From Treponema sp. (GTDB taxonomy: Bacteria > Spirochaetota > Spirochaetia > Treponematales > Breznakiellaceae), in the NCBI GenBank assembly GCA_031255615.1, contig JAIRSD010000106.1:1-29666 (forward strand): a stretch of DNA of 29,666 nucleotides, written 5' to 3'. Positions 14,956-28,619 of the stretch are shown here, one piece after another (the first letter of the stretch is position 1; each line of letters starts with the position of its first letter). The notes beneath the pieces are model-generated. The model made no database searches. It had not been told where the DNA came from and saw only the letters and a list, made by a program, of their open reading frames with translations. The position numbers were made by a program, and so were the translations under genes.

Positions 14956-14956
14956 A

Positions 14957-15585
14957 CCGCCGCTATAGATGCTCTGGGGTGTCAGACGGTCATAGCGGAA
15001 AAAGATATACGGGATAAAAAAGCTGACTATGTTCTGGTGGTGAAGGAGAACCAGCCCACGCTGTTTAAGGACATTTAGGATTATTTTGCCTATCTGAACG
15101 AGGCTTCATGCCGGGACCGGGCGGCTGACCAGTGGACCGGCGAGCTGGAGAAAGACCAGAGGAGGATAGAACGAAGGAGTGTCGCCACGGTCAGGTCCCT
15201 GGGACTGGCTTGCAAGCAAAGGAAACTGGCAAGACCTGCCCTTATCCGGCATCGATGTGAGCGGACAGCGGGAGGGGCCATGACCGTGGCCGATCACTAT
15301 TATATTAGTAATATGACTGCGGTCGCTGAAGAGTTCGCCGCGGTGATGCGTGGTCATTGGTCTACCGAGAATCAGTTGCACTGGTCGCTGGATGTGTTAT
15401 TCCGGGAGGATGCTTCTCAGGTGAGGAAGGAGAGGGATTCCGAGAATCTGAACATCCTACGGAAGACAGTGCTGGGCAGATTATGGGCGACTGGTGTTCA
15501 CGGCCGACGGTTAAGTACGAAACGGAAGATATTCAAGGATTCGGTTAACCCGGATTTCCTCTACTCCGTTCTGTTTGGAAAGTAA
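14957..15585 (+). pseudogene. ISAs1-family transposase remnant (N-terminus missing)
   Basis: The C-terminal half of an ISAs1-type (H-repeat-associated) transposase. TAAIDALGCQTVIAEKDIRDKKADYVLVVKENQPTL covers the second catalytic region, then comes a TAG stop at 15076-15078. The central part is frame-disrupted (RRSVATVRSLG, LIRHRCERT). The intact tail from 15280 reads ADHYYISNMTA, HWSTENQLHWSLDVLFREDAS (catalytic Glu region) and NLNILRKTVLGRL. The first half, with the DGK motif of the family, is absent. The fragment begins exactly where the neighbouring IS ends, so truncation by or beside that IS is likely. It is not functional. Confidence 0.85.
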
Positions 15586-15920
15586 ATGCTTCTGCCCTGC
15601 CAGCACCGTCTTCCCGTGTTTTACCGCGGAGTTTAACCTGATGTTCCACCGGCAGCCGGCTTGCAAGGAGCAGACCGCCTTTGCACCGCTTCCCACAGGC
15701 TTCGACCTTGATGCCCTACTTGCCGTCAAATACACACGCAAAACCGACAACTGCGGCTTTTTCTCCTTTCAAAATTATACCTTTCAGGTTGACAGCCCCG
15801 TCCGCCGGTGAAGAAAAACATCGTGTTCATGTTCAGCGCGTATTATGACAAAAAGTATTACAGGGTGAAATTCCCTGAGTTCCTGACTAAAGACAAAAAA
15901 ATCACATATGCCACAAGTTA
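15586..15920 (+). pseudogene. C-terminal fragment of an ISNCY-like transposase
   Basis: Frames here resemble the tail of ISNCY-type transposases: FNLMFHRQPACKEQTAFAPLP, then DLDALLAVKYTRKTDNCGFFSFQNYTFQV, which is the conserved beta-strand tail of that group. After a stop at 15809-15811 another frame continues KKNIVFMFSAYYDKKYYRVKF, as the final barrel does in relatives. The catalytic core is missing. It abuts the ISAs1 fragment. The family call is from pattern memory, so moderate confidence. Confidence 0.55.
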
Positions 15921-16080
15921 CCATCCTTCAGCGCCATTTCCAGAGCGCGGACAGCCCCAGGGCGTCCCGGCATGGAAACCGACTACTTTTCTCGACCGCA
16001 AATCCATCAGCAGGCTGAGGTACAGAAAGCCCTGTCGGTGCGGATATAGGTGATGTCAGCCGACCACGCATGGAAGAGCC
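15921..16080 (-). pseudogene. IS3-family OrfB transposase fragment
   Basis: On the minus strand, starting near 16080, the sequence reads GLFHAWSADITYIRTDR, the start of the IS3 OrfB integrase core with its first catalytic Asp. After a one-base shift it continues FLYLSLLMDLRSRKVVGFHAG. Another shift gives LEMALKDG at the end. The order and spacing match IS3 OrfB closely, but the fragment spans only about 50 codons, has at least two frameshifts and lacks both ends. It points opposite to the other transposase remnants. Confidence 0.7.
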
Positions 16081-16113
16081 CGCGAGGATCGCGCCGCCAT
16101 GGAACGGGATCCT

Positions 16114-16266
16114 TGAGTTTTTGCCGTGCAAAAACTCACACGGTGAAAAAGGGCGGAGCCCCAGCCGGTCCGCGCAAGGGATAGGAGCGGTATCCTTTTG
16201 CCCGGTCCGCCGGGCAAAAGGATTTAAGCGGATAGCCCGGTCCCCGCCGGAGGCGGGGATGCGCCC
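16114..16266 (+). repeat. Hairpin-variable intergenic repeat, copy 1
   Basis: The core is 16171-16266. Island 1 is CGCGCAAGGG-ATAGGAGCGG (16171-16190). Hairpin B follows, with a 14-bp perfect stem 16192-16205/16210-16223 and TCCG loop. Island 2 is AGCGGATAGCCCGG (16227-16240). Hairpin C has an 8-bp stem 16241-16248/16252-16259 with GGA loop. Island 3 is ATGCGCCC (16259-16266). An extra 11-bp hairpin precedes it at 16114-16138 (TGAGTTTTTGC/GCAAAAACTCA). The islands match the other three copies, while the stem sequences do not. It lies between IS debris and the broken kinase remnant. Confidence 0.85.
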
Positions 16267-16302
16267 AAAACAAATTCTCACCCGGACTACCGAATTTTCA
16301 AA

Positions 16303-16358
16303 AACAGGAATTATCGCTAGCTTGCGCGGCGATTCTGATAGCTATTACAATTCCTGTT
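16303..16358. repeat. Inverted repeat between repeat copy 1 and the kinase remnant
   Basis: A perfect 10-base inverted repeat, AACAGGAATT (16303-16312) and AATTCCTGTT (16349-16358), with partial further pairing inside (CGCTAGC against GCTAT). The spacer is 36 bases. It could form a long hairpin or be an operator or IS end. No T-tract follows, so it is not an obvious terminator. Confidence 0.5.
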
Positions 16359-16369
16359 GGAGATGGGCG

Positions 16370-16734
16370 ATGAAGCGGGTCCTGGTTATGAAGAGGCTCC
16401 GTTGTTCCGGGGAAGAATCCTTTCAACTGGGCTTTGACGCCGGTCCGGGGTTTAAAAGTCCCGACATTGAAGGTCTGCGGGAATCCTTAAGGGGCCGCAG
16501 GATTACTGCCGCTGATGATGATTTTTCCGTTCGGGGGCTTGTCAAAAATACCTTTGAAAGCGCCGGGATTTCGACGGATTTTTTCCGACGGCGGTCCAGC
16601 GGGACACGGTGGTTCGGGATTTTCAAATGGGAATAAAAAGTTATGCGGCCAAACCGGTAAGGCCTTTGGATGCTTTCCAAAAAAACGTCGATGGTCTAAT
16701 CTTAGTTTTTGATCGCGGGAGGCGAAATGGGTAG
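16370..16734 (+). pseudogene. Receiver-domain remnant of a hybrid histidine kinase
   Basis: One frame reads SLRGRRITAADDDFSVRGLVKNTFESAG (acidic triplet at 16514-16522), matching the first strand, acidic pocket and helix 1 of a response-regulator receiver. The phospho-acceptor segment in the middle is missing. A different frame from about 16624 then reads QMGIKSYAAKPVRPLDAF, the strand-5 region with the conserved Lys-Pro, and stops at 16732-16734. It is therefore a receiver domain with an internal deletion and a frameshift. The leading segment SFQLGFDAGPG may come from the end of the kinase part. It cannot signal as it stands. Confidence 0.6.
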
Positions 16735-16918
16735 TGCCGGTACTGCGGCCGGGGGGCTCCGAATCGGAGCGGATCCTGGCGGCGGGGAGTTGTACGAGAA
16801 TTTAATGGGAAACGCAGCATTGATCAGATCCCTCCTCCCGCGTTTTATTGAACGGACGGAACGGCGGGCCGGGGAACAAAAATTTCAGCCCCCCGGCAGG
16901 GAATCCGGGGAACCATGA
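16727..16918 (+). CDS. Small ORF, HPt-like fragment, overlapping the PHP gene
   Basis: 63 codons from ATG 16727, preceded by GGGAGG at 16718-16723. The segment ELYENLMGNAALIRSLLPRFIERTE resembles the first helices of a histidine-phosphotransfer domain, which would follow the receiver in a hybrid kinase. The part that should carry the phospho-histidine is absent, being replaced by a Pro/Gly-rich tail. Its stop overlaps the next start (ATGA at 16915-16918), so it might be translated and coupled to the phosphatase gene. More probably it is the last piece of the broken kinase. Confidence 0.4.
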   Translation: MGSAGTAAGGLRIGADPGGGELYENLMGNAALIRSLLPRFIERTERRAGEQKFQPPGRESGEP

Positions 16919-17823
16919 AAAACAGCCTCCCCCGTTACGGCCTTTCCTGCCTCCATACCCATACCTTCTTTTGCGACGGTCAGGACGATGTGGAAACCTA
17001 CTGCCGCCGGGCCTGGGAGGGGGGATTCCACTCCCTGGGATTCAGCGCCCACGGGCCGATTACGAAAAAGACGGGCCTTGCGAGCGATTGGAATCTGCCG
17101 GAGGAGCGGCTGGAGGCGTACCTGGACGCGGTGCGGGAAGCCCGCCGCCGCTGGGAGGGGAAACTTCGAATATACCTGGGCATGGAGGTTGATTACATCG
17201 GCGGCCTTACGGGGCCGGCGGACAAAGAGTACCGGGCCCTGGGGCTGGACTACCTTATCGGATCGGTGCATTACCTTATCCCCCCCCGGTCGGTCCCTTT
17301 TACCGTGGACGGAAGCCGGGAAGAACTGGACAGGGGGTTAAGGGAAGGCTTCGGCGGCGACGGGGAAGCCCTTATGCACTGCTACTGGGACCAGGTGGCC
17401 GCCATGATCCGCGCCGGGGGCTTTGAAATTCTGGGCCACGCGGACCTTATCAAAAAAAACAACCGCCCCCTTCAGGGGGGGAAGCCTTTTTTTGATCCCG
17501 CCGGTCCGGGCTACCTTCAAAGGACCGGAGAAATCGCCGCCCTGGCGGGGGAAGCCGCCGGTTCCGGCATGGCGGTGGAGCTAAACACCGGCGGGATGAA
17601 CCGGGGAGGGGCGAGCGAGGCTTACCCCTCCCCCGCCATGCTGCGGCTGTTCCGGGAAAACGGGGTCCCCGCGATCATCAACGCCGACGCCCACCGGGCC
17701 CAGGACCTGGACGGCCATTACGGGGAAGCTCTGGAGATGATGCGGCAGGCGGGCTACCGCTCGACGGCGCTGTTTGAGGGCAAGGAAGGGGGCCGCCCCC
17801 GCTGGCGGCAATTCCAAATTTGA
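16915..17823 (+). CDS. PHP-domain phosphatase, histidinol-phosphatase type
   Basis: 302 residues with a PHP fold. CLHTHTFFCDG (His14, His16) holds the first metal ligands, FSAHGPI follows, and GMEVDY near 90 holds the metal-ligand Glu. LDYLIGSVHYL is the family-typical central His, then LGHADLIKK near 180 and NADAHRAQDL near 260 complete the trinuclear site. The layout matches HisK/HisJ-type L-histidinol-phosphate phosphatases of histidine biosynthesis. No other his gene is nearby, so another phosphoester substrate is possible. The gene is strongly GC-rich, unlike the cluster before 13 kb. The start overlaps the small upstream ORF; no independent strong ribosome binding site is obvious. Confidence 0.83.
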   Translation: MKNSLPRYGLSCLHTHTFFCDGQDDVETYCRRAWEGGFHSLGFSAHGPITKKTGLASDWNLPEERLEAYLDAVREARRRWEGKLRIYLGMEVDYIGGLTGPADKEYRALGLDYLIGSVHYLIPPRSVPFTVDGSREELDRGLREGFGGDGEALMHCYWDQVAAMIRAGGFEILGHADLIKKNNRPLQGGKPFFDPAGPGYLQRTGEIAALAGEAAGSGMAVELNTGGMNRGGASEAYPSPAMLRLFRENGVPAIINADAHRAQDLDGHYGEALEMMRQAGYRSTALFEGKEGGRPRWRQFQI

Positions 17824-17826
17824 GGA

Positions 17827-17842
17827 CCGGGGAGGCCCCCGG
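17827..17842. terminator. Short GC hairpin between convergent genes
   Basis: CCGGGG/CCCCGG stem with AGGC loop in the 25-base gap between the ends of the PHP and DksA-like genes. It could stop transcription from both sides, but neither side has a T-tract, so this is weak. Confidence 0.3.
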
Positions 17843-17848
17843 CGGACC

Positions 17849-18205
17849 TTAGCGGTTGCGGCGTTCTTCCGCGGTCTTACAACTGATGCACATCAATGCG
17901 TAGGGGATGGCCTCCAGGCGCTCCTGGGGAATCCGTTTGCCGCACTTGATACAAAGTCCGTATTTACCCTGTTGAATCCTCGTAAGGGCGGAGTCGATCA
18001 GCCGGAGCCGTTTCATTTCCTGGGATCCGATGGCTTCAATCATTTTCCGATCTATGTCATCGGAGGCGATATCCGCCAGATCCTTGGGGTCCAGCCCCTC
18101 CACGATTTCTTTAAAATCTTCATTGTTCACCAACAGGTTAGAGATTATTTCTTTTTTAAGATCCGTCAGGGATGTCTCCATCCGATCAACGAAGGCCTGT
18201 TCCAT
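17849..18205 (-). CDS. DksA/TraR-family zinc-finger transcription regulator
   Basis: About 118 residues: an acidic helical region (coiled-coil-like, MEQAFVDRMETSLTDLKKEI through IGSQEMKRLRLIDSALTRI) followed by a C-terminal zinc finger, YGLCIKCGKRI then ALMCISCKTAEERR (four cysteines). The family binds RNA polymerase through the secondary channel and tunes transcription, often with ppGpp. This member has the length of short treponemal DksA-like proteins; the coiled-coil tip has no clear DxxDxA motif, so true DksA activity is uncertain. I place the start at ATG 18205 (GAGG seven bases before); a TTG at 18220 would add five residues. Confidence 0.85.
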   Translation of the reverse strand: MEQAFVDRMETSLTDLKKEIISNLLVNNEDFKEIVEGLDPKDLADIASDDIDRKMIEAIGSQEMKRLRLIDSALTRIQQGKYGLCIKCGKRIPQERLEAIPYALMCISCKTAEERRNR

Positions 18206-18279
18206 ATCCTCCCCTCTCAATTCCGCCTTGAATTCGTAAGTTTTGGGCTTTTAAATGAACCTTTACTTTAAGTCTGCGT

Positions 18280-18308
18280 ACATTGCCGTATGTTGGCTTT
18301 TTTGTCAA
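18280..18308 (-). promoter_or_regulatory. Candidate sigma-70 promoter for the DksA-like gene
   Basis: On the minus strand a perfect -35 TTGACA (18308-18303) is followed after 17 bases by CAATGT (18285-18280), which keeps the important A2 and T6 of a -10 box but is otherwise poor. A start about 65-70 bases before the DksA-like ATG would result. Confidence 0.35.
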
Positions 18309-18373
18309 GTCGTTCTACAATTTTTCCATCGTTTTTCTCAAGGTTTTTTGGATAATTTTTACGGAGGATCATC

Positions 18374-18961
18374 ATGGCGAAAAAAGCGGTTGTCCTGCTG
18401 GCCGGCGGTTTTGAAGAGGTGGAGGCGGTAACTCCCATCGACTACCTGCGGCGGGCGGGGGTTGATCTTGTCAGCGCGGCCCTTGGGGAGGAGCGCATGG
18501 TTGCCGGTTCCCACGGCATAGTCCTGGAGGCGGATACCACCCTGGGAGAACTGAAAAAGCGGGCCGGAGACGGAGATTTCTGGCGGGATTGGGACGCCGT
18601 AGTGGTCCCCGGCGGACTGGACGGGGCCGCGAATCTGGCGGCTTCCGAAGAAACCGGGGCCCTTTTGCGGGGTATGGCCCGGGAGGGAAAGCTGGTGGCC
18701 GCCATCTGCGCCTCCCCGGCGGTGGTTCTGGCCCCCCTGGGGCTGCTGGCGGGGAAAAGTTTTACCTGCTATCCGGGGATGGAGCAGGGCCTTTCCGAGG
18801 GACTCTGGTCGCCGGACCGGGTGGTCCGGGACGGGAACCTTATCACCAGCCGGGGGGCGGGGACCGCCGGGCTCTTTGCCGCCGCGGTCGCCGGCGCCCT
18901 CATGGGGGAAGACGCGGGGAAGAAGCTGGCCCGGTCCGTCCTGTTGGATTTGGAGGGCTGA
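18374..18961 (+). CDS. DJ-1/PfpI (ThiJ) family protein
   Basis: 195 residues, full length for the DJ-1 subgroup. AVVLLAGGFEEVEAVTPID (residues 5-23) contains the conserved Glu, VVVPGGLDGAANL near 77-89 follows, and VAAICASPAVVLAPLGLL places the reactive Cys in the nucleophile elbow. ITSRGAGTAGLFAAAVAGAL is near the C-terminus. Members act as glyoxalase/deglycase-like or redox-protective proteins; the exact role cannot be set here. GGAGG at 18362-18366 supports the ATG. Repeat copy 2 starts 31 bases after its stop. Confidence 0.88.
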   Translation: MAKKAVVLLAGGFEEVEAVTPIDYLRRAGVDLVSAALGEERMVAGSHGIVLEADTTLGELKKRAGDGDFWRDWDAVVVPGGLDGAANLAASEETGALLRGMAREGKLVAAICASPAVVLAPLGLLAGKSFTCYPGMEQGLSEGLWSPDRVVRDGNLITSRGAGTAGLFAAAVAGALMGEDAGKKLARSVLLDLEG

Positions 18962-18991
18962 TACAGCCAAGGCGGGCAGCACACAGCGTAA

Positions 18992-19118
18992 GGCGAAAGC
19001 CGCGCCGGCCGGCGCGGCTTTCGCCCGCGCAAGGGCTAGGAGCGGAACAAAAACCCGCAGGGTTTTTGTTAGAGCGGATAGCCCGGTTTTTTGCGGCGGA
19101 GCCGCAAAAAATGCGCCC
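18992..19118 (+). repeat. Hairpin-variable intergenic repeat, copy 2
   Basis: It starts with a perfect 34-base palindrome (18992-19025, 17 bases per arm). Island 1 is CGCGCAAGGG-CTAGGAGCGG (19026-19045). Hairpin B is an 11-bp stem 19046-19056/19060-19070 (AACAAAAACCC/GGGTTTTTGTT, GCA loop). Island 2 is AGCGGATAGCCCGG (19073-19086). Hairpin C is an 11-bp stem 19087-19097/19101-19111 (TTTTTTGCGGC/GCCGCAAAAAA, GGA loop). Island 3 is ATGCGCCC (19111-19118). It fills the gap between the DJ-1 gene and the ABC ATPase gene, same strand as both. Confidence 0.88.
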
Positions 19119-19234
19119 AAAAGACCAAAAAAACGCGGCATTCGCCCTTTTATGCGTCCCTTCCGGTTTAAAACGGGGATCCGGTCAAGGCGGGAATCCT
19201 CCTCAATGTTCCCGGCCTGTGATAGAATGGAAGG

Positions 19235-20215
19235 ATGCCGGTTATCACTGTAAAAAATTTGGAGAAGCGTTTTAACCTAGAGGCGGGTTTTTTTGCTTCC
19301 TTCGGTCGTTTTGTCCACGCGGTGAGGGGGCTTTCTTTTTCCATTGGGGAGAACGAAAGCTATGGTCTGGTGGGGGAGTCGGGCTGCGGCAAGACTACCA
19401 CCGCCCGGCTTCTGGTCAGGATGTACCGCTGGGATGGGGGGACTATCCGCTACGGGAATGATACCGATGTGGCCGCCCTTTCCGGCCCGGCCCTGAAGGA
19501 CTACCGGGAAAAGGTAAAGTATGTCTTCCAGGATCCCGCCCGCTCCCTCAATCCCCGGATGACGGTCAACGACGTGTTGATTTCCGGGTACCGCCATTCT
19601 TCCCATTTTCCGGGTGAAAAGACGGCCCGCGACGAGGCGGCCCGGATCCTGACGGAGGTGGGGCTTTCCCCGGCGGATCGGGAAAAGCGGCCTTCGGAAT
19701 TTTCCGGGGGCCAGCGGCAGCGGATTTCCATTGCCCGGGGGCTATTGATGCGGCCGGAGCTTCTGATCTGCGACGAAGTAGTGAGCGCCCTGGACGTGTC
19801 CATTCAGGGGCAAATTCTGAACCTTCTTTTGGATATCCGGGAGAAACGGGGGCTCTCCTTCCTTTTCATCGCCCACGATTTGAAGGTGGCCTGTTATTTT
19901 TGCGATCGTATCGGGGTCATGTACCAGGGGGAGCTGATGGAGGAAGGGCCGGCGGAGAATCTTTACCGGGATGCCCGGCATCCCTATACCCGGCTCCTCT
20001 TTTCTTCGGTAAGCGGAACCGGGGATCCCCGGCATTCCTTTTCTGTTCCGCCGGGCCCCCCGGCGGGGGGATCCGCGGAAACGGAGGGTCCCCGCTGTCC
20101 CTTTGCCCCCCGCTGCATCAGGGCGGAGGCCCGGTGTTTCGCCGAACACCCGGAACTGCGGGATCTGGGGCCGGGCCGCCGGGTTCGCTGCTTCTTTATG
20201 GCAGAGGAACCCTAA
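19235..20215 (+). CDS. Oligopeptide/dipeptide ABC transporter ATP-binding protein (OppF/DppF-like), orphan
   Basis: 326 residues. Walker A GESGCGKT is at residues 47-54, the Q-loop at FQDPARSLNPR, and the signature SGGQRQRISIARGL near 155. Walker B is ELLICDEVVSALD and the H-loop FIAHDL. The C-terminal oligo/HPY region has GELMEEGPAENLYRDARHPYT and a cysteine cluster (CPFAPRCIRAEARC ... RCF), the classic OppF/DppF tail that can hold an Fe-S cluster. It would energise peptide or nickel uptake with partner permeases. None of the partners (OppA, B, C, D) is adjacent, so it is either an orphan serving a distant system or a leftover. Confidence 0.88.
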   Translation: MPVITVKNLEKRFNLEAGFFASFGRFVHAVRGLSFSIGENESYGLVGESGCGKTTTARLLVRMYRWDGGTIRYGNDTDVAALSGPALKDYREKVKYVFQDPARSLNPRMTVNDVLISGYRHSSHFPGEKTARDEAARILTEVGLSPADREKRPSEFSGGQRQRISIARGLLMRPELLICDEVVSALDVSIQGQILNLLLDIREKRGLSFLFIAHDLKVACYFCDRIGVMYQGELMEEGPAENLYRDARHPYTRLLFSSVSGTGDPRHSFSVPPGPPAGGSAETEGPRCPFAPRCIRAEARCFAEHPELRDLGPGRRVRCFFMAEEP

Positions 20216-20233
20216 TCCGGGTATGACTCGGGT

Positions 20234-23200
20234 ATGACGCCTTTTCATCCCCTGATAACCGCCTGGTTTACCCGGCGTTACGGGAAGCCGACCGCTATCC
20301 AGGGGGCCGCCTGGCCCCTTATCGGGGAGGGGCGGCATGTGCTGGCCCTGGCTCCCACGGGGAGCGGCAAAACCCTTACCAGTTTTCTTTCCGCTATTTC
20401 CCAATTCTGCCGGGGGAGCTATCGGGCGGATGAACTATCGGTCCTTTATATTTCTCCCCTTAAGGCCCTGAACGAGGATATCCGGCGGAATCTCCTGGAA
20501 CCCCTGGCGGAAATTCGGCGGGTCTTTGAAGAAGCCGGGGAATTGTTCCCCCCCGTTACCGTGGAGACCCGGTCCGGGGACAGCTCCCAGGCGGAGCGGC
20601 GGCGTTTTTACCGCCGTCCCCCCTCCATTTTGGCAACTACCCCGGAAAGTCTGGCCCTTCTCCTCCTGAATCCCCGGGGCCGCAACGTCCTTTCTTCCCT
20701 GTGCTGCCTTATTCTGGACGAGGTCCACAGCATCCTGGGGACCAAGCGGGGCAGCTTCCTGTCCTGCCAGGTGGACCGGCTTTCCCTTATCGCCGGAGAG
20801 AGGGGGGAATTTCAGCGGATCGGCCTTTCCGCCACCGTACATCCTCCGGCGGCGGCGGCGGAATTTCTGGGGGGGCTGCGAAAAAACGGAGAAGGTCTGG
20901 AAGGGCGGCCTGTCAGCATCGTCGCCCCTCCGGCGGAAAAGGAGATCAGCTTTGTGGTGGAGGATCCCGGGGAGGACCCTGCTTTGCGGATTCTCCGCCG
21001 GGTGGAGGCGAACCGGACCACCCTGGTTTTTACCGGTTCCCGGCGGGGGGCGGAGCGTTTAAGCTACCGGATCAACCAGGCCGCCGGCCGGCCCCTTTCC
21101 GTCGCCCACCATGGGAGTTTATCGAAGGAATTGAGGCGGGCGGTGGAGCAGGGCCTGGCGGAAGGAAGGATCCCCTGCGCGACGGCCACATCTTCCCTGG
21201 AATTGGGAATCGACATCGGCAGCGCCGACGAGGTGATTCTGGCGGGAAGCCCCTCCTCGGTTTCCGGGGCCCTCCAGCGGATCGGCCGTTCCGGCCACGG
21301 GGTGGAACGGATCAGTAGGGGAAGGTTTATCCCCCTCCATAGTTCCGATCTGTTGAACGCCGCGGCCCTGGAGACCGGTATTCGGGATCGGGAGATCGAA
21401 GCGATCCGCCCTATCGAAAATCCCCTGGACATTCTTGCCCAAATTATCCTGGCCCTCTGCGACGAGGGGGATCGCCGGATTGACGAACTCTACCAGACGC
21501 TCCGGGCTTTCTACGCCTTCCGAACCTTAAGCCGTCCCGCCTACGACTCGGTTCTGGAGATGCTGGCCGGCCGCGGGAAGGGAGGGCGGCTGCGGGATCT
21601 GAAACTTAGGCTCTACTGGGACAGGGAAAGCGGCGTCCTCAGCGCGGCGCCGGGGACTCGGCTGCTCCTGTACGCCGCCGGCGGGGTGATTCCCAGCCGG
21701 GGACTCTACAGTCTGCGTCTGGCGGGGGAGCAGACAAAAATTGGGGAACTCGATGAGGAATTTGTCTGGGAACGCCGTTTGGGGGACAGTTTCAGCTTTG
21801 GGAACCGTTCCTGGCAGATCAGCGCCATAGGGCACGAGGCGGTGGAGGTGGTTCCCCGGGACAATAACTCGGATTTTATCCCCTTTTGGCGGGCGGATCC
21901 CCAGTTCCGCAGCCCGATCCTGTCCCGGCGAATCATGGAGATTCTGGACTCTTTTAACCGGGACGGCGAATTGCCCGCCGTCCTGCTGCCGGGATTCACC
22001 CCCGCCGCCCTGGAAGCCCTTAACCGCTACCTGGATTCCCAAAAAAGGGCCCAGGGGATGGGGGGTGATTTTCAACGGCCCGTCCCCCTGCCGGGTTCGG
22101 CCTGTATACCCTGCGAGATCATTGAAAAACTGCCCGCCGGTGGATCCGTTGCCGGGAGGCCCGTTGACGGAAACCCGGAGGGGCGGCAGGCGCTGCTCCA
22201 CAGTTTTTGGGGCGGGGCAATCAATTATCCCCTTTGTATGGCCCTTGCCCAGGAGCTTGAAGACCGGACCGGAGGACGGATAGAGAGTTTTTCCGACGAC
22301 AACACGATCCTTTTCCTCCTGCACGGCGGGGAAAAAACGGGGCCCGGCGAGTTGGAGGGACTTTTTACCGGCATATTCCGGGACCTTAACAGCCCCGGGC
22401 CGGACTCTCCGGCTTTTTCACGGTTCGGCGGCCTTTCCCGGGGGGAACTGCAGTTTTTCCGGCGTCTGGAATCGGGGAGCCGTTTCGGCGCCACTTTTCG
22501 GGAGGCCGCGGAACGGAGTCTTGTCCAGCCCCGGGGGAGTTTTGGAAAGCGGATTCCCCTGTGGATTATCCGGCAGCGGGCGAAGCGCCTTTTTGACGCG
22601 GTCCGGGGGGAGGAGGATTTTCCCCTTGTCGCCGAGGCCTGGCGGAGCTGTCTCCAGGACGAATTTGATCTTCCCGGTTTTCGGAGGCTCATCGGCGCCC
22701 TGAGCACCGGGGCCGTCGGGGTCCCTTTTTTTCATACCCTGGGGGGAAGCCCCTTTGCCCGGAGCATCATCTGGCAGGAGACCAATGCCCTGCTCTATGA
22801 ATACGACGAACGGAAGGATCTCCGCTCCCGCGTCCGGGGGTCCGGCAAGGGGGGCTTTGCCGGTTCCCCCTCCGGCCCGGAAACTTCCCTTTCCGACCGG
22901 GTGATCGCCGAAGCCCTGGGGGACGCATCCCTCCGTCCGGTCATTCCCCGGGAGCTGGCGGAGGGTTTTTCCGGACGCCTGCGGCGGGAATTGCCCGGCT
23001 GGGCCCCGGAAGAAAGCCGTTCCCTGGCAGAATGGGTCAAAGAACGGATCGCCATTCCCGCCGACGAATGGGAGGTCCTGCTGCGGGTCCTCCCCTCCCC
23101 GGCGGCGGAGGAACTGGCCGGGGATCCCTCCCTGGGGGGGAAGATCCGATCTGTCAAACGGCAGGGGGCGGCCCTCCCTTCCATGGTGCACCGGGAATGG

Positions 23201-24859
23201 GAAAAAACCTGGCTTCAGGAAGCCCCGTCCCTCCTGGACCGGTGGCTCCGTTTCCAGGGCCCCCTGCCCCTGTCCTGCATCGGCGCCGTTTTCGGCCTGA
23301 ATCCGGGGGAGCTTGAAGACTCGGTAAACGGCCTGGCCCGGGAAGAAAGCGGCGGCGGACCCGTGCTGATCCGTTCCGTGGCGGTGGAGGGCCGGGGGAC
23401 GGACCTGATCTGCGACGCGGAAAACCTGGATCTCCTCCTCCGCCTAAAACGGGCCGGCGCGAGGCCGGAGATTAAAGAACGGTCCCTGTCCCTCCTGATC
23501 CCCTTCCTGGCCCTGCGGCAGGGCTGGTCCTTTGACGATTCTCCCGGCCTCCGGACCGGAGAACCGCAAAGGGATTCCTCCGCCGACGCCGCCTTGGGGC
23601 TTGGACTCTGGGCGGCGGGCCTCAGCCTGCCGGCAAAACTTTGGGAAACGGAGATTCTCCCCGCCCGGCGGAAGGACTACCGGAGCGAGGATCTGGAAGA
23701 GGAACTGCGGGAGGGACGGCTCCTCTGGTATGGCGCGGGGAAGGAGGCGGCCTTCTGCCGTCCCGAAGATCTGGATTTGACGGCCCCCGAAACGGGGAAG
23801 GCCGGGTTCGGTGAAGATCCTTTCCCTCCGGGTTTCTTTGACAAGCCCCGGGATTACTGGGAGATCAAGGAGGTCTGGAGGAACTCTGCGGCGGACCGGG
23901 GAGGGGATCGGATCCTTATGCCGGTTATCAAAGAGCAGATCCGAAAGGGCCGCCTCAGTTCGGATTCCTGGGAAGCCCAGCGCCGCGGTATTCTGGAAAA
24001 CGACGGCGCCCGGGAGGATAGCGATATTGAGGCCGCCGGGTCCGGTCGGGGCGGTTTTGCCGCAGAACCGGCGTATGACGCTAATCCCGGGGCCTTTTTC
24101 CCCTACCGCCGGATTCCCCCCGCCCTGCGCGGCCGGGCGGCCCTGCGCAGCCGCTGGAAGCAGGGCCCTCCCCTGCCGGGGTGCTGGTTTTCCCTGGACC
24201 GGGAGAATGTCCCCGAAGCGGAGGACCCCTGGTACCAGGAGGAACTGGACAGGGAACGGGTACGGCTCCTCCTCCGCCGCTGGGGGGTCCTTTGCCGGCC
24301 GCTTTTGGAACGGGAGAACGGCGCCCGGGGGGGACCCCTTTCCTGGGCCCGGCTCCTCCCCGCGATGCGGCGGATGGAACTGGCGGGGGAACTGACGGCG
24401 GGCCGTTTCTTTTCCGGGATCAATTCCCTCCAATTCGCTTCCCCCGCGATTCGACGGGAACTGGAGGAAGCGGAAGCCCTTGCCGGATGCGGGAGGGAGG
24501 CCCCGGTCTTTCGGATGAACGCGGCGGATCCCGCCAGCCCCGCGGGCCTCGGCGTCGAAAACCCCGATCCCCGGATTCCTCCCCGTTCTCCCCGGAACCG
24601 GCTCTATTACCGGGGGCGGGAACTTATCGCCGTGTCAAAACGGAACGGAAGGGAACTGACCGTTTTTATTCCCCCCGAGGACCCCGCCCTGGGGACGTTG
24701 GCGGCCCTCATGCAGGCTCCCCGGCGGCGGAACGTTGCGCCGGAGAAAAAAATCGTCATAGAAAACGTCAACGGGGTTTCCGCGGCCGCCTCCCCCTACG
24801 GCCTCCAATTCATTGAGGCGGGTTTTATAGCGGACCGGGGCAGACTCTACCTGTGGTAG
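20234..24859 (+). CDS. lhr: Lhr-type large superfamily 2 DNA helicase
   Basis: 1541 residues, the size of full-length bacterial Lhr. Walker A APTGSGKT is at residues 40-47, LYISPLKALNEDIRRNL is motif Ia, ATTPESLALLL is motif Ib, LDEVHSILGTKRG is the DEVH box, and LSATVHP is motif III. In domain 2, TLVFTGSRRGAERLSY, TSSLELGIDIG and QRIGRSGHGV form motifs IV-VI. Winged-helix and beta-barrel Lhr-core parts follow, then a long GC-rich C-terminal extension as in Lhr-CTD. Known Lhr enzymes are 3'-5' helicases linked to DNA damage response. It begins 19 bases after the ABC gene; an upstream ATG at 20224 ends after four codons. Loosely conserved Gly/Arg/Pro-rich stretches near residues 870-900 and 1270-1290 look like linkers. 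Confidence 0.92.
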   Translation: MTPFHPLITAWFTRRYGKPTAIQGAAWPLIGEGRHVLALAPTGSGKTLTSFLSAISQFCRGSYRADELSVLYISPLKALNEDIRRNLLEPLAEIRRVFEEAGELFPPVTVETRSGDSSQAERRRFYRRPPSILATTPESLALLLLNPRGRNVLSSLCCLILDEVHSILGTKRGSFLSCQVDRLSLIAGERGEFQRIGLSATVHPPAAAAEFLGGLRKNGEGLEGRPVSIVAPPAEKEISFVVEDPGEDPALRILRRVEANRTTLVFTGSRRGAERLSYRINQAAGRPLSVAHHGSLSKELRRAVEQGLAEGRIPCATATSSLELGIDIGSADEVILAGSPSSVSGALQRIGRSGHGVERISRGRFIPLHSSDLLNAAALETGIRDREIEAIRPIENPLDILAQIILALCDEGDRRIDELYQTLRAFYAFRTLSRPAYDSVLEMLAGRGKGGRLRDLKLRLYWDRESGVLSAAPGTRLLLYAAGGVIPSRGLYSLRLAGEQTKIGELDEEFVWERRLGDSFSFGNRSWQISAIGHEAVEVVPRDNNSDFIPFWRADPQFRSPILSRRIMEILDSFNRDGELPAVLLPGFTPAALEALNRYLDSQKRAQGMGGDFQRPVPLPGSACIPCEIIEKLPAGGSVAGRPVDGNPEGRQALLHSFWGGAINYPLCMALAQELEDRTGGRIESFSDDNTILFLLHGGEKTGPGELEGLFTGIFRDLNSPGPDSPAFSRFGGLSRGELQFFRRLESGSRFGATFREAAERSLVQPRGSFGKRIPLWIIRQRAKRLFDAVRGEEDFPLVAEAWRSCLQDEFDLPGFRRLIGALSTGAVGVPFFHTLGGSPFARSIIWQETNALLYEYDERKDLRSRVRGSGKGGFAGSPSGPETSLSDRVIAEALGDASLRPVIPRELAEGFSGRLRRELPGWAPEESRSLAEWVKERIAIPADEWEVLLRVLPSPAAEELAGDPSLGGKIRSVKRQGAALPSMVHREWEKTWLQEAPSLLDRWLRFQGPLPLSCIGAVFGLNPGELEDSVNGLAREESGGGPVLIRSVAVEGRGTDLICDAENLDLLLRLKRAGARPEIKERSLSLLIPFLALRQGWSFDDSPGLRTGEPQRDSSADAALGLGLWAAGLSLPAKLWETEILPARRKDYRSEDLEEELREGRLLWYGAGKEAAFCRPEDLDLTAPETGKAGFGEDPFPPGFFDKPRDYWEIKEVWRNSAADRGGDRILMPVIKEQIRKGRLSSDSWEAQRRGILENDGAREDSDIEAAGSGRGGFAAEPAYDANPGAFFPYRRIPPALRGRAALRSRWKQGPPLPGCWFSLDRENVPEAEDPWYQEELDRERVRLLLRRWGVLCRPLLERENGARGGPLSWARLLPAMRRMELAGELTAGRFFSGINSLQFASPAIRRELEEAEALAGCGREAPVFRMNAADPASPAGLGVENPDPRIPPRSPRNRLYYRGRELIAVSKRNGRELTVFIPPEDPALGTLAALMQAPRRRNVAPEKKIVIENVNGVSAAASPYGLQFIEAGFIADRGRLYLW

Positions 24860-24860
24860 C

Positions 24861-24986
24861 ATGAATAACGCCGCCGCCCCTCAGTTTGCCGTCGGCATGG
24901 ACATCTGCCGCGGCCCGGGCCGCGGCGCTCCACAGAGGGAGGAGATTCCGGCGAAAGCCGAAGGCCGCCGCCCGCGCAAGGGATAG
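24861..24986 (+). other. 41-codon ORF ending inside repeat copy 3, possible truncated gene start
   Basis: ATG 24861, two bases after the lhr stop, opens a frame whose first residues MNNAAAPQFAVGMDI look like the start of an actin-fold sugar kinase (xxVGxDIGGT style). The similarity stops at the first base of a GC palindrome belonging to repeat copy 3. The frame then runs through the repeat and ends on the TAG of island 1. I read it as a gene start cut off by the repeat, or coincidence. There is no good ribosome binding site. Confidence 0.25.
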
Positions 24987-25068
24987 AAGCGGAATTCCCC
25001 GCCCCCGGCGGGGGCGGGGAATTGGAGCGGATAGCCCGGTCCCCGGCCCCCGGGCCGGGGATGCGCCC
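24907..25068 (+). repeat. Hairpin-variable intergenic repeat, copy 3
   Basis: A perfect 20-base GC palindrome at 24907-24926 and a CGGCGAAAGCCG hairpin lead into island 1, CGCGCAAGGG-ATAGAAGCGG (24973-24992). Hairpin B is a 14-bp stem 24993-25006/25010-25023 with GGC loop. Island 2 is AGCGGATAGCCCGG (25026-25039). Hairpin C is a 10-bp stem 25040-25049/25052-25061. Island 3 is ATGCGCCC (25061-25068). It sits between the convergent lhr and mannosidase genes, in the orientation of lhr. Confidence 0.87.
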
Positions 25069-25108
25069 ATCGATTCAGGAGAGACGCGGGGCCTTCGGAT
25101 CGAGCATA

Positions 25109-25126
25109 CCGGCATCCGGCTGCCGG
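25109..25126 (-). terminator. Hairpin after the mannosidase stop
   Basis: CCGGCA/TGCCGG stem with a six-base loop, starting seven bases beyond the mannosidase stop codon on the minus strand. No T-tract follows, so a terminator role is only possible. Confidence 0.3.
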
Positions 25127-25132
25127 GGGGGC

Positions 25133-28100
25133 CTAGAATTCCACCAGCACCGTCTTGATTTCAAAGGGCCGGAATTCCAGGGCGATTTCGTCTCCGGCGC
25201 GGCTGAGTTCCGCCCGGGGCCGCTCCAGCATGTCGGTTTCCCAGGCCCCGGAGATCCCGCCGCCGGGGGGGTTGAAGCGAAGCAGGGCCCGGGACCGGCC
25301 CCCCAGACTTTCGTAGAGCCGCAGCACCAGGGCCCGGTCCTTTTTTTGTTTTGTCAGTCCAAAGGGGCTTTCCGGGGCCTTGAGGCACTCCAGGATCACG
25401 CCGGGGTTGTCTATTGTGAGGGGGGAATAGCGGGAGGGATCCGCCGCGGCTGTCTCGACGGGGGCCGCCGCGCCGGAGCCGCATTCCCAGATTCCGGGGG
25501 CGTTGAGTTCGTAGGCGGCCCGGACGGTTCCTGACCGGGCGAAGGGCCCCGCGAAGGGGAACAGGGCATAGGTAAAGCTGTGGCGGCCCTGATCCGCCTC
25601 CTCGTCCGGGGCGGCGGGGGAACGGAGCAGGGTAAGCCGGATATTTCCGCCGGAAACGTCGCAGCCGTACTTGCAGTCGTTAAGCAGGGCCAGCCCCGAA
25701 GCGGCGTCCTCCACCGAGACCCACTTATGGGCGCAGATTTCGAACATCGCCCGGTCCTGGGGCAAATTTTTGTGGGTGTTCCGCAGGAGATGGCCGTACT
25801 GCACCTCGCAGCGGACCTGAGCCGCATCAATGTCGCTGTCGAAGCAGACTTTAAGGAGCCGCCGCTTTTCATGCCAATCCACCCGGGTAACAAAATCCAC
25901 GCGCCGGTTCCGGGCGTAGGCGATCATGTCCTGGGTCAGGACGGAGGCCCGCCCGATACGGTAGACCCGGCGCAGGATAAAACACTCGCTCCCGGCGGCG
26001 GCGACGGCGGTCGATTGAAGTCCGGTTTCATCTTCCAGGAAGGCGGTCCAGTCCGCGTCGATGTCCCAGGCTTCCCAGAGGACCGGCAGATCCTGGGCGC
26101 CCACGAAGTAATTGAAGCGGCCCCCCGCGCGGACCAGCTCCCGATCCCCCTCCTTATCCCGCATCCCCCGGATTGCCCCGGAATCGTCAAACTGAATCCG
26201 GTAGAAGGGGGTGTCCAGGACGCCGCCGTCGTAGGCGAAGGGGGAAGGCCCCTCGGCCTCGCCGCCCGCGAAATGGGCCCAGCCCAGGGCCGGCAGCCTG
26301 GGGGAGAAGGCCGCCGTTTCCTCGCCGTCGATGTTCCGGAAACGCTGGACGGGGAAGGCGGCGTCCCCCGGGACCGCGCCGGCGGGCCGCAGGGCCCGGA
26401 GTTCCGGCCCCAGGAGGGAGGCGGGCATAAAGACCGGATCCTCCCGGTCCCAGGAAAGGCTGTTGAACAAGGTAAGCGGCGCCTTGCCGGGCCCCCCGGC
26501 GTGGATCTGCTCCCGCAGGGTTTTGGCAAGCGCCGTCAGGGAGCCTTCGATCTCCCGGTAGGATTCTTCGGCCTCCCGGTAGACCCGATTGATCGAGGAA
26601 CCGGGGATGATGTCGTGGAACTGGTTGGTCAAAAGGGCCTTCCAGTTTTTCAGGAGCTCCCCCTGGGGATAGGGGGCCCAGCCGTTGAGGGCGGCGACGG
26701 CAAAGAGGGCCTCGGTATGGCGCAGGGCGAATTCCAGGCGGCGGTTCCAGCGTTTGGTCCTGGCCTGGGTGGTATAGGTGCCCCGGTGGAGTTCCAGGTA
26801 CAGTTCCCCCCGCCACTCGGGCCACTGGATTTCCCCATCGGGGCCGAAGACGCTGTCCAGGGCGGCGGAGATCCGGTTCCACCGGGCCCGGGGGGCCCCT
26901 TCCAGGTCCGCCAGACGCTTCGCCATCTCCAGGTCCCCCCGGGCCGTGCCGCCGCCGCCGTCCCCCTCCCCTACGGCGTTGACCGCCTGGGACTGAATCT
27001 CCTTATGCTGAATCTGATCCCAGATCTCCGCCAGGAATTCGGGCCCCGCCTTGCCGTTGTAGCCCCGCAGCCGGGAGGAGATGTAGTGGGTCTTGATTCC
27101 CGTGCCGTCTATGCCCCGCCAGATAAAGGTGTCGTAGGGGAAACGGGTGGTATCGTTCCAGTTGATCTTGCTGGTAACAAAATATTTGATCCCGCAGCCC
27201 GCCAGAATTTGGGGCAGCGCCGCGGCGTAGCCGAAGACATCGGGAAGCCAGAGGGTGTCCGCCTCGCGGCCCAGCAGTTCCCAGTTCGCCCGCTTCCCCA
27301 CCAGGAATTGGCGGACCAGGGATTCCCCGCCGGAAAGATTGCAGTCCGCCTCCACCCACATGCCCCCGTTGGGATCCCAGTTCCCCTTCCGGCAGGCCTC
27401 TTTCACGGCCTCAAAAATTGAGGGGTACTCCCGCTTGATGATCTCCAGTTGGGCGGGCTGGGTCTGGATAAAGACAAAGTCGGGGTACTCCTCCGCCAGG
27501 CGGATCATGTTGATGTAGGTCCGGGCGGCCTTCCGCACGGTTTCCCCGATATGCCAGAGCCAGGCGTGATCGATGTGGGCGTGGCCGATAAGGTGAATCT
27601 CCGGAACCGTGGGGCCGTTTTTCGCCTCCAAAAGGGGGGCGAGTTCCCGGGAAGCCGCCGCCGCTTTCCGGTCCAGATCCTCCCCGGCGGAATCGAAGGG
27701 GATCTTCAGCAGAGCGTCGTAAAGGCCCTTGATAATCCGGGCCCGCCGCAGGGAATTATCGGGCAGGATCCCGGCCAGGTCAAACAGGCAGGCCGCGTCG
27801 TAGTAAAGCCGGTACACCGGCTCCACCCGCTCCACCAGGGCGCCGCCCTCAAAAATATTCGGGTATCCGGGAATCTGCCGCTGGAGGGTAAGGATAACCT
27901 TTTCCCCCTCAAAGGGATGGACCCCCGGATAGGGATGCCCCGCGTAGGATTCCAGATAGAGGCGGTGGACCTTCCCGTCCGCCATGGAGGGAGGAATCTT
28001 GACCTTCTTGTGGGCGGGATTAAAGGCCCCCGCCGGCTTTCCGTCCAGAAAAAGAAGGGAATCCGCGTTGGGGATGATCCGCAGGTACCGGGGATAGCCA

Positions 28101-28345
28101 TTCCCCGCGTAGTCCCCGGCAGGAAGGGCAAACTCCGACCGGAACCAGTAGCAGCGCCAGGGCTTCCCGTATGCCCAGGGACAGGATATTTTTTCCCAGG
28201 CTTCCGGGGGAAGCTCCCCGGGCCCGCGAAAACTCTCCTCCGTGGACAGGGCCTCAAATTCAAGCCCCCCGATTTCCCGGTAGCGCCGGGATTTCAAAAC
28301 AGAAAGGTACTGCCTTATCCGCTGCTCCGCCTTTGGAATCAACAT
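25133..28345 (-). CDS. Glycoside hydrolase family 38 alpha-mannosidase
   Basis: About 1070 residues, normal for bacterial GH38. After an N-terminal beta domain, IHLIGHAHIDHAWLW carries the zinc-binding His and Asp, and GGMWVEADCNLSGGESLVRQFL and LWLPDVFGYAAALPQIL (catalytic nucleophile Asp) follow. Next come YFVTSKINWND, LYLELHRGTYTTQARTKRWNRRLE and QFHDIIPGSSI, all family landmarks; the C-terminal half is the beta-sandwich. It releases alpha-mannose from glycans in a retaining, metal-dependent reaction. There is no signal peptide, so it is probably cytoplasmic. I chose ATG 28345 (GGAGG five bases before, giving MLIPKAEQRIRQYL). The frame stays open to 28501 with ATG 28417 as alternative, but the longest version starts in repeat copy 4. 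Confidence 0.9.
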   Translation of the reverse strand: MLIPKAEQRIRQYLSVLKSRRYREIGGLEFEALSTEESFRGPGELPPEAWEKISCPWAYGKPWRCYWFRSEFALPAGDYAGNGYPRYLRIIPNADSLLFLDGKPAGAFNPAHKKVKIPPSMADGKVHRLYLESYAGHPYPGVHPFEGEKVILTLQRQIPGYPNIFEGGALVERVEPVYRLYYDAACLFDLAGILPDNSLRRARIIKGLYDALLKIPFDSAGEDLDRKAAAASRELAPLLEAKNGPTVPEIHLIGHAHIDHAWLWHIGETVRKAARTYINMIRLAEEYPDFVFIQTQPAQLEIIKREYPSIFEAVKEACRKGNWDPNGGMWVEADCNLSGGESLVRQFLVGKRANWELLGREADTLWLPDVFGYAAALPQILAGCGIKYFVTSKINWNDTTRFPYDTFIWRGIDGTGIKTHYISSRLRGYNGKAGPEFLAEIWDQIQHKEIQSQAVNAVGEGDGGGGTARGDLEMAKRLADLEGAPRARWNRISAALDSVFGPDGEIQWPEWRGELYLELHRGTYTTQARTKRWNRRLEFALRHTEALFAVAALNGWAPYPQGELLKNWKALLTNQFHDIIPGSSINRVYREAEESYREIEGSLTALAKTLREQIHAGGPGKAPLTLFNSLSWDREDPVFMPASLLGPELRALRPAGAVPGDAAFPVQRFRNIDGEETAAFSPRLPALGWAHFAGGEAEGPSPFAYDGGVLDTPFYRIQFDDSGAIRGMRDKEGDRELVRAGGRFNYFVGAQDLPVLWEAWDIDADWTAFLEDETGLQSTAVAAAGSECFILRRVYRIGRASVLTQDMIAYARNRRVDFVTRVDWHEKRRLLKVCFDSDIDAAQVRCEVQYGHLLRNTHKNLPQDRAMFEICAHKWVSVEDAASGLALLNDCKYGCDVSGGNIRLTLLRSPAAPDEEADQGRHSFTYALFPFAGPFARSGTVRAAYELNAPGIWECGSGAAAPVETAAADPSRYSPLTIDNPGVILECLKAPESPFGLTKQKKDRALVLRLYESLGGRSRALLRFNPPGGGISGAWETDMLERPRAELSRAGDEIALEFRPFEIKTVLVEF

Positions 28346-28493
28346 ACGCGCCTCCGCAAAAACCTTGGCCGCCGCGCTGCCGGCATAGCGGTTGGACCCG
28401 CGCCGAGGTTCTCCCATTCTTATATCTTGGGAAGCAAATTGCAAGAAGCCGGGGGGAAATGCCGCGTATCGAGTGTATGTTGGGTGTATTTTT

Positions 28494-28619
28494 GGGCGCA
28501 TATTTTGCGGCGGGCCGCAAAAAACCGGGCTATCCAGGGCTCCGCTTCGCTCCGGCCCCGCCTCCGGCGTGGCTGCTCCGCACCCTTCCTATCCCTTGCG
28601 CGGGCAATGCCGCCCGCGC
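28494..28619 (-). repeat. Hairpin-variable intergenic repeat, copy 4 (inverted)
   Basis: On the minus strand, an 8-bp hairpin GCGCGGGC/GCCCGCGC (28619-28612/28605-28598) overlaps the start of island 1, CGCGCAAGGG-ATAGGA (28602-28587). The middle hairpin is longer (about 28586-28536) and branched, closed by AGGG/CCCT. Island 2 is reduced to GGATAGCCCGG (28535-28525). Hairpin C is TTTTGCGGC/GCCGCAAAA (28522-28514/28511-28503, outer pairing imperfect). Island 3 is ATGCGCCC (28501-28494). It lies between the kinase gene and the mannosidase gene, both on the same strand. Confidence 0.85.

What the first reader, a model, noticed from the sequence alone, without database searches (positions are those of the whole stretch)
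16114..28619. A four-copy repeat with fixed sequence islands and interchangeable hairpins
Cores at 16171-16266, 19026-19118, 24973-25068 and (minus) 28602-28494 share islands CGCGCAAGGG-ATAGGAGCGG, AGCGGATAGCCCGG and ATGCGCCC in the same order. Between them sit two hairpins whose positions are conserved but whose stem sequences are unrelated (CCTTTTGCCCGG, CAAAAACCC, TTCCCCGCCCC in hairpin B). Every stem stays perfectly or nearly paired. Conserved loops or islands with freely drifting but compensated stems are the hallmark of selection on a folded RNA or on single-stranded DNA hairpins. I do not recognise it as a named RNA or REP family.
Basis: partly seen in the sequence, partly recalled or inferred. 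Interest (0 to 1): 0.85.

Follow-up and report, generated by a model that had tools for sequence, protein, structure and literature searches.

The report
Folded DNA repeat filed as RNA
The four look-alike segments in this termite-gut Treponema contig belong to a widespread bacterial repeat catalogued as a small RNA of unknown function, and the letter patterns in its hairpins suggest that what is preserved is a folded single strand of DNA.

Summary
A model built without the four copies finds all four (E 2.8e-19 to 2.5e-11). They belong to Rfam RF01705 "Flavo-1" (copy 1: 43.4 bits, cut-off 42), listed as a Bacteroidetes motif without assigned function. The element is larger than the Rfam model: a closed three-way junction of outer stem P0, rod P1 with purine loops, and arms P2 and P3. 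It is dispersed and mostly extragenic: at least 74 matches in one Treponema MAG, matches in 69 of 195 family genomes (43 above cut-off), and 8 copies on 5 Paraclostridium plasmids. Stems covary (184 two-sided against 3 one-sided changes). Two features favour DNA over RNA. Inside the drifting arms 18 of 1705 pairs are G-T, against 29 of 388 in tRNAs of loci at hand. Of 112 triloops 73 are GNA, against 11 of 73 in control palindromes. A RAYT partner is not supported. Best reading: a REP/attC-like structured-DNA element with an unidentified protein partner. The DNA reading is statistical; mobility is inferred from distribution.

The parts
16169..16272 (+). Copy 1, whole element (P0-P1-P2-P3 three-way junction); Rfam Flavo-1 above its cut-off
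   Evidence: RF01705, 43.4 bits, cut-off 42; R1 87.2 bits; R2 80.8 bits
16172..16175 (+). Copy 1, outer stem P0 5' strand GCGC, pairs with 16261-16264
   Evidence: Fold; pairs counted
16192..16223 (+). Copy 1, arm P2 (first hairpin)
   Evidence: Fold
16240..16260 (+). Copy 1, arm P3 (second hairpin), GGA triloop 16249-16251
   Evidence: Fold
19024..19124 (+). Copy 2, whole element, downstream of a DJ-1/PfpI gene (18374-18961 +) and upstream of an ABC transporter ATPase gene (19235-20215 +)
   Evidence: 77.8 bits; 66.8 bits; genes
19046..19070 (+). Copy 2, arm P2, GCA triloop 19057-19059
   Evidence: Fold
19086..19112 (+). Copy 2, arm P3, GGA triloop 19098-19100
   Evidence: Fold
24971..25074 (+). 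Copy 3, whole element, between the 3' ends of an Lhr-type helicase gene (20234-24859 +) and a GH38 alpha-mannosidase gene (25133-28417 -)
   Evidence: RF01705 36 bits, below cut-off; 86.3 bits; 82.3 bits; genes
24993..25023 (+). Copy 3, arm P2
   Evidence: Fold
25039..25062 (+). Copy 3, arm P3
   Evidence: Fold
28488..28604 (-). Copy 4, whole element, variant with a longer branched P2; lies between an FGGY-type kinase gene (28684-29595 -) and the alpha-mannosidase gene. An element sits at the same place in relative L001
   Evidence: 56.3 bits; L001:233-356, 48.3 bits; 51.3 bits; sequences; genes

Best explanation
The four copies are members of the Flavo-1 family, which is a dispersed, non-autonomous DNA element. 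One strand, when single, folds into a closed three-way junction: outer stem P0; rod P1 with two symmetric purine loops (GAA opposite GGA); arm P2 on top of P1; arm P3 beside it. Islands and fold are preserved, while the arm sequences drift in matched pairs. The most likely mechanism is REP-like or attC-like: a trans-acting DNA-processing protein, not identified here, reads the single-stranded fold and spreads it into extragenic sites next to gene ends. Copies may then also recombine with one another. Shown here: membership by covariance models, the full fold and its covariation, high copy number, mostly extragenic position, and DNA-type loop and wobble statistics. Inferred: that the functional form is single-stranded DNA, that it moves, and that a protein reads it.
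For: (1) Fold. 92.5% of cells paired in 30 copies (covariation 0.357 against 0.133 shuffled) and 94.7% in 29 distant Spirochaetota copies (0.520 against 0.131; that alignment is fitted to the model). RNAalifold finds the same architecture unaided on 25 window-free copies. (2) DNA rather than RNA. Two-sided changes number 100 against 6 one-sided, and 184 against 3. With the island boundaries fixed and G-T allowed as a pair, 18 of 1705 arm pairs are G-T (173 arms); tRNAs give 29 of 388 (21 tRNAs of the window, L001-L053 and L208-L267). Of 112 triloops 73 are GNA and 7 TNC, against 11 GNA and 14 TNC of 73 control triloops; counting each stem-and-loop once, 42 GNA and 6 TNC of 78. GNA and GNNA loops with at least two G-C pairs are described as extraordinarily stable in DNA (PMC4686876, passages). 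A second set (26 of 40 given copies) has 7 of 8 triloops GCA. (3) Dispersal. At least 74 matches in G001; 25, 21 and 27 in G381, G460 and G547 (E up to 0.01); 8 copies on 5 plasmids of Paraclostridium, a different phylum. Relatives lack an element beside the copy 3 helicase end (G001, G110) and before the copy 2 ABC gene (G110, G004). (4) Position. 5 of 83 copies overlap a predicted gene by more than 30%. The 3' end lies within 60 bp of a gene's 3' end in 35 of 48 cases, against 6 of 33 for the 5' end (p 5e-7). (5) In F. psychrophilum, Flavo-1 hits lie in sense or antisense of transcripts without pattern (PMC9723704, passages).
Against: No mobilising enzyme was found. The candidate tested, Y1_Tnp (RAYT/IS200), is absent from the matches of the high-copy genomes G001, G121 and G110; among 69 element-bearing genomes its number does not track copy number (rho -0.01), and 0 of 41 Y1_Tnp loci examined carry an element. 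No precise insertion with a target duplication was seen. Element strand shows no replication-strand bias (58 of 117), unlike what lagging-strand insertion would give. The wobble count depends on rules: a looser script that lets arms slide into the islands and accepts G-T gave 118 G-T of 2084 pairs. Most of these are probably one island G opposite an island T just outside P3, present in 94 of 118 copies, which in RNA would be a G-U pair. In the distant set only 2 of 7 P3 triloops are GNA. Copies within a genome share ancestry, so counts are not independent. Near-perfect palindromes could also be kept by template switching without selection. No transcription data were available. At copy 4 only 1 of 49 relatives' loci given to the model has an element.
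Confidence: 0.5

Rival explanations
1. It is what Rfam says: a structured RNA (sRNA or untranslated-region element), transcribed at many loci and selected as RNA.
For: Strong covariation and low folding energies; purine internal loops also suit RNA (recalled); an island G-T pair just outside P3 could be a conserved G-U (94 of 118 copies); several F. psychrophilum 5' regions coincide with Flavo-1 hits.
Against: Few G-T pairs inside the arms (18 of 1705, against 29 of 388 in tRNAs) and few one-sided changes (6 against 100, 3 against 184). Loops favour GNA triloops; RNA-type GNRA or UUCG loops are rare (7 of 51 tetraloops). Orientation to neighbouring genes is mixed, and Flavo-1 hits in F. psychrophilum lie in both senses.
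Confidence: 0.25
2. It is a host-maintained DNA site (for chromosome organisation, recombination or priming on single strands, or for insulating gene ends) kept at each place by selection on the host, not a mobile element.
For: Islands stay nearly identical while arms differ between copies, which suggests that copies are under selection. Some orthologous sites are kept in sister genomes (both flanks shared at 5 of 21 G381 elements examined: L402, L404, L406, L408, L419) and at copy 4 in L001. The polar position beside gene ends is strong.
Against: Presence is patchy: 69 of 195 family genomes; neighbours of copies 2 and 3 lack it in the relatives that could be checked. Copies also sit on Firmicutes plasmids. 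Matches vary from 0 to at least 74 among 15 relatives.
Confidence: 0.25
3. It acts in the messages of neighbouring genes, as a terminator or 3'-end protector, usually in antisense orientation to the gene whose end it abuts.
For: 35 of 48 copies whose 3' end faces an oppositely oriented gene lie within 60 bp of that gene's 3' end.
Against: No regular T-tract follows the hairpins. The conserved purine loops belong to the strand that is antisense to the abutted gene. Copies also lie in front of genes (32 D+ cases).
Confidence: 0.12
4. Neutral palindromes: arms stay complementary only because template switching copies one arm onto the other.
For: In the orthologous pair L413/L436 two arm pairs changed together and the two-base loop reads as its own reverse complement, as template switching would give.
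Against: P0 and P1, whose strands are separated by other hairpins, also covary; purine internal loops stay unpaired; islands are nearly invariant; GNA loops are strand-biased (73 against 7).
Confidence: 0.08

Closest known systems
Rfam RF01705 Flavo-1 (Weinberg et al. 2010, PMC2864571)
   Same: Same islands (GATnGAAGCGGAA ... GCGGAnAGC) and the same P1-P2 pairing as the Rfam model. Of the loci found with RF01705, I gave 36 of 56 to R1, mostly better-scoring ones; 36 of 36 matched at 61 bits or more.
   Different: The Rfam model has 76 positions without P0 and P3. It is typed as an sRNA gene, and the source table gives Bacteroidetes only. Here the fold is completed, copies are found in Spirochaetota and on Firmicutes plasmids, and DNA-type loop statistics appear. 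I recall, without checking, an online description that mentions some Spirochaetes members.
REP elements with RAYT transposases (Di Nocera et al. 2013, PMC3733652; PMC6006769; passages of both read)
   Same: High-copy, extragenic, palindromic, close to gene 3' ends, single-stranded fold; the CGTC class also lacks a dedicated transposase.
   Different: REPs are 20-40 bp palindromes tagged GTAG or CGTC. This is a roughly 100-150 nt three-way junction without such a tag, and no Y1 transposase partner was found.
attC sites of integrons
   Same: Works like: a folded single strand with drifting stems and conserved islands. PMC8632094 (passages) reports an attC-type structured DNA caught by an RNA search, so the confusion has a precedent.
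   Different: No RYYYAAC at the 5' end (motif named in PMC8632094) in the consensus; copies are dispersed, not in gene-cassette arrays.

Membership tests
Rfam RF01705 Flavo-1 | Covariance-model score at or above the curated cut-off of 42 bits | tested here: met
   Met by copy 1 only, with 43.4 bits. Copy 3 scores 36, and copies 2 and 4 are not listed at E up to 10. They join through R1/R2, whose other members include RF01705 hits above cut-off.
Rfam RF01705 Flavo-1 | It is an RNA (type 'Gene; sRNA') | tested here: inconclusive
   Wobble and loop statistics speak for DNA; no expression data.
REP / RAYT system | Terminal GTAG or CGTC tag at the hairpin foot | tested here: not met
   The consensus shows neither at either end; tags as described.
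REP / RAYT system | Y1 tyrosine transposase gene flanked by copies | tested here: not met
   0 of 41 Y1_Tnp loci examined carry an element at E up to 0.1 (these are the loci handed out, not every Y1_Tnp match). G001, G121 and G110 show no Y1_Tnp. Draft genomes may miss genes.
REP / RAYT system | High-copy extragenic position near gene 3' ends | tested here: met
   5 of 83 copies overlap gene calls by more than 30%; 35 of 48 within 60 bp of a gene 3' end on the element's 3' side, 6 of 33 on its 5' side.
Integron attC | RYYYAAC / GTTRRRY core boxes and cassette arrays | tested here: not met
   RYYYAAC absent from the consensus islands by reading (GTTRRRY is recalled); copies dispersed. Integrase genes were not searched.
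MITE | Terminal inverted repeats and target-site duplication | tested here: inconclusive
   Only the 4-5 bp P0 pairs the ends; no precise empty site was obtained.

The most novel reading that the evidence does not exclude
Flavo-1 is not an RNA at all but a natural structured-DNA family: a single-stranded three-way junction with symmetric purine loops and arms often capped by GNA or GNNA mini-hairpin loops. It occurs across Spirochaetota, Bacteroidota (by Rfam's listing) and Firmicutes plasmids, and is recognised by a still unknown DNA-processing system that is neither a RAYT nor an integron integrase.
Probability: 0.4. Interest if true: 0.78.

Novelty: new variant of a known kind. Interest (0 to 1): 0.58.

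Why it matters
A widely listed small-RNA family (named in the section on most abundant sRNAs of a 2022 survey, PMC9029176, passages) may be misfiled. If the DNA reading holds, annotation pipelines label DNA elements as sRNA genes, and a folding-dependent DNA element without a known enzyme becomes open to direct test. The wobble and GNA-loop counts are simple and could be run on other Rfam families of unknown function.

Tried and rejected
Named families: REP/RAYT membership was tested and not met. Y1_Tnp and element presence are weakly associated (51 both, 18 element only, 68 Y1 only, 58 neither, of 195; p 0.009), which shared ancestry or genome completeness could explain. attC was rejected on sequence. 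CGTC repeats, reported in Spirochaetes and Bacteroidetes, have 8-9 bp stems and 4-5 nt loops, so they are a different thing. A 2025 survey predicts REP palindromes in Flavobacterium and Spirochaetota genomes (PMC12306157, passages; no Treponema); whether they overlap Flavo-1 I could not see.

Composite transposon: elements often face inward around 1-7 kb, but the enclosed genes look like housekeeping genes (recognised by recall), so this was dropped.

Replication-directed insertion: no strand bias (58 of 117 copies with enough flank, of 120 given).

Phages, viral contigs, plasmids: no match with window copy 1 in plasmids, none in phages, none in viral contigs (exact-pattern scans are narrow).

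Empty sites: the copy 3 helicase end in G001 and G110 and the stretch before the copy 2 ABC gene in G110 and G004 carry no element, but homology stops before the insertion point; the G004 contig ends 115 bp after the helicase stop and the G001 contig starts in the ABC gene, so those two could not be judged. In the sister pair G381/G460, both flanks are shared at 5 of 21 G381 elements, one site holds elements on opposite strands (L421/L428), two G381 copies in L407 face one in L435, and some flanks change partner at an element (L405, L416, L418). The rest are unresolved, partly through contig ends. Draft assemblies may be chimeric at repeats, so I do not count rearrangement as shown.

Wobble count: the first script penalised every pair that is not Watson-Crick (11 G-T of 1950) and so understated wobbles at stem ends; a loose one gave 118 of 2084. 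I rely.

An inserted copy in an IS remnant beside copy 1 was considered and left undecided; the IS assignment is by recall.

Weak RF01705 hits in G004 (28-30 bits) include at least one inside a gene (L090) and are probably false, so the count of 69 of 195 may include false matches; 43 of 195 exceed the cut-off.
Full report
What is there. The window carries four copies of one element, on + at 16169-16272, 19024-19124 and 24971-25074, and on - at 28488-28604. Model R2 was built from 25 copies of two other genomes (16 of G001, 9 of G121) without the window and with RNAalifold's own structure. It finds all four at 80.8, 66.8, 82.3 and 51.3 bits, so the repeat is far beyond chance. The closest relatives of the alpha-mannosidase gene between copies 3 and 4 are termite-gut Treponema MAGs, best 75% identity (L001, Treponema sp. 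Cd354_bin128; that the MAGs are from termites is recalled). No whole genome is held for the window.

Name. Copy 1 reaches the Rfam cut-off for RF01705 Flavo-1 (43.4 against 42 bits). Copy 3 scores 36 bits; copies 2 and 4 are not listed. Flavo-1 was listed in 2010 for Bacteroidetes as a structure candidate, not cis-regulatory and no switch (PMC2864571, table passage; the meaning of the columns is recalled). It was later noted in F. psychrophilum as lying in either sense of transcripts or outside them (PMC9723704, passages). Searches of the paper library for 'Flavo-1' and for 'RF01705' found 3 and 4 papers. Of the three that I read, passages only, none assigns a function or a DNA interpretation in those passages; the other two RF01705 papers I saw only in the listing. 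Only open-licence papers are held.

Anatomy. In an alignment of 30 copies (4 window, 17 of G001, 9 of G121; a choice from the 64 cores found), the following structure holds. Outer stem P0 is GCGC at the 5' end with GCGC at the 3' end. Rod P1 is GGG-A-TA-[GAA]-GC-[GGA] against [GAA]-GC-[GGA]-TA-G-CCC, twofold symmetric with two 3x3 purine loops. Arm P2 sits on P1, and arm P3 lies in the junction. 92.5% of 808 cells pair, 17 of 27 pairs show two-sided changes, and the covariation score is 0.357 against 0.133 in shuffles. The Rfam model covers P1 and P2 only. In 29 distant Spirochaetota copies 94.7% of 696 cells pair, with 184 two-sided and 3 one-sided changes (that alignment is fitted to the model, and five U-G cells are among the two-sided ones). 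P0 itself changes in step, for example GGGTT with AACCC, GCGAA with TTCGC and GCGTG with CACGC. A G001 subfamily drops one base on both sides of a purine loop.

Copy 4 and its orthologue. An element lies at the same place upstream of the mannosidase in L001, and in none of the 48 other relatives' loci given. Between the window and L001, P1 TA/TA becomes TT/AA and an A-T pair becomes G-C (my reading). In the orthologous pair L413/L436 of two sister genomes, two arm pairs changed together in P3, none was broken, and the two-base loop is reversed. Other orthologues show uncompensated changes: one A-C mismatch in L285 against L283 (read) and one lost pair in L406/L422.

DNA or RNA. The first count measured 199 arms of 123 distinct copies (5 copies unparsed, 37 weak arms dropped): 1924 Watson-Crick, 11 G-T, 4 A-C and 11 other pairs. 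That script penalised all pairs other than Watson-Crick. With boundaries fixed inside the islands and G-T accepted, 173 arms gave 1672 Watson-Crick, 18 G-T, 4 A-C and 11 other pairs. A loose version that may slide into the islands gave 118 G-T of 2084; an island G and T just outside P3, present in 94 of 118 parsed copies, probably explain most of it. In 21 tRNAs of the window, L001-L053 and L208-L267, 29 of 388 pairs are G-U. Of the 199 loops, 112 are triloops; 73 of these are GNA (GCA 29, GAA 22, GGA 19, GTA 3) and 7 are TNC. Palindromes elsewhere in L208-L267 give 11 GNA and 14 TNC of 73 (Fisher p 9e-12). Counting each distinct stem-and-loop once gives 42 GNA and 6 TNC of 78. GNA and GNNA loops with at least two G-C pairs are extraordinarily stable in DNA (PMC4686876, passages). 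A second set (26 of 40 given copies of G381, G460 and Paraclostridium plasmids; the rest dropped as duplicates or too short) gave 179 Watson-Crick and no other pairs under the penalising rule, 7 of 8 triloops GCA, 5 of 6 tetraloops GNNA, and 8 two-base loops. Against this, the 23 distant copies gave only 2 GNA of 7 triloops, though no G-T among 162 pairs under the same rule. Copies in a genome share ancestry, so the p-values overstate.

Distribution. RF01705 matches: 6 of 15 genomes reached through loci, with 74 in G001 (150 of 459 candidates scored, so a lower bound); 69 of 195 genomes of the family, 43 of 195 above cut-off. R1 matches: 82 of 392 genomes drawn from the phylum (at most 9 candidates scored per genome). 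Among 72,556 plasmid records, five Paraclostridium bifermentans plasmids carry 8 copies; three of them carry an inverted pair around an amidase region. No phage record matched.

Position. With a hexamer gene finder of my own on 60 loci and the window (83 copies), 5 copies overlap a gene call by more than 30%. The element's 3' end lies a median of 30 bp from the 3' end of an oppositely oriented gene (48 cases, 35 within 60 bp); the 5' end lies a median of 115 bp from a gene's 3' end (33 cases, 6 within 60 bp). In 16 of 19 convergent intergenic regions the 3' side is the closer one. Strand relative to GC skew is even (58 of 117).

Partner. Y1_Tnp occurs in 119 of 195 family genomes, in 51 of 69 with the element, and not in G001, G121 or G110; copy numbers do not correlate. 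None of 41 Y1_Tnp loci examined carries an element. The partner, if any, is unknown.

Judgement. Shown: a Flavo-1 family member, a complete covarying fold, dispersal, mostly extragenic polar position, and DNA-type stem and loop statistics. Inferred: function as folded single-stranded DNA, recognition by a protein, mobility.

Noticed in passing
window 13800-16120: A stretch without intact genes except short ORFs; remnants that look like ISAs1- and IS3-type transposases (by recall of motifs, e.g. WSADITYI at about 16050 on -; Pfam gave no match for two ORFs).
   Followed up: partly
window 16303-16358: A separate imperfect palindrome (AACAGGAATT ... AATTCCTGTT) just downstream of copy 1.
   Followed up: no
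G001 loci L148-L187, up to 170 bases upstream of the elements: Further hairpin repeats recur directly 5' of the element (for example GCTAAAAAATGGCA..TGCCATTTTTTAGC), so elements sit in mosaics of several repeat families.
   Followed up: partly
G121 loci, downstream of GCGCCC: A tail close to ATTCCGAATCGAA follows several copies, and two of them (L190, L195) have its complement about 40 bases upstream of the core; the element may have an outer stem in this genome.
   Followed up: no
L405/L429/L431, L416/L432/L427, L418/L424/L433 (G381 and G460): Between two sister genomes, flanking homology changes partner at or near elements, as if copies were rearrangement endpoints; draft assemblies, not settled.
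   Followed up: partly
L421 and L428, around 4000: The same intergenic region holds an element on opposite strands in the two sister genomes.
   Followed up: partly
L465, L466, L467 (Paraclostridium plasmids): Inverted pairs of the element, 5' ends inward, enclose an amidase region of 2-3 kb.
   Followed up: partly
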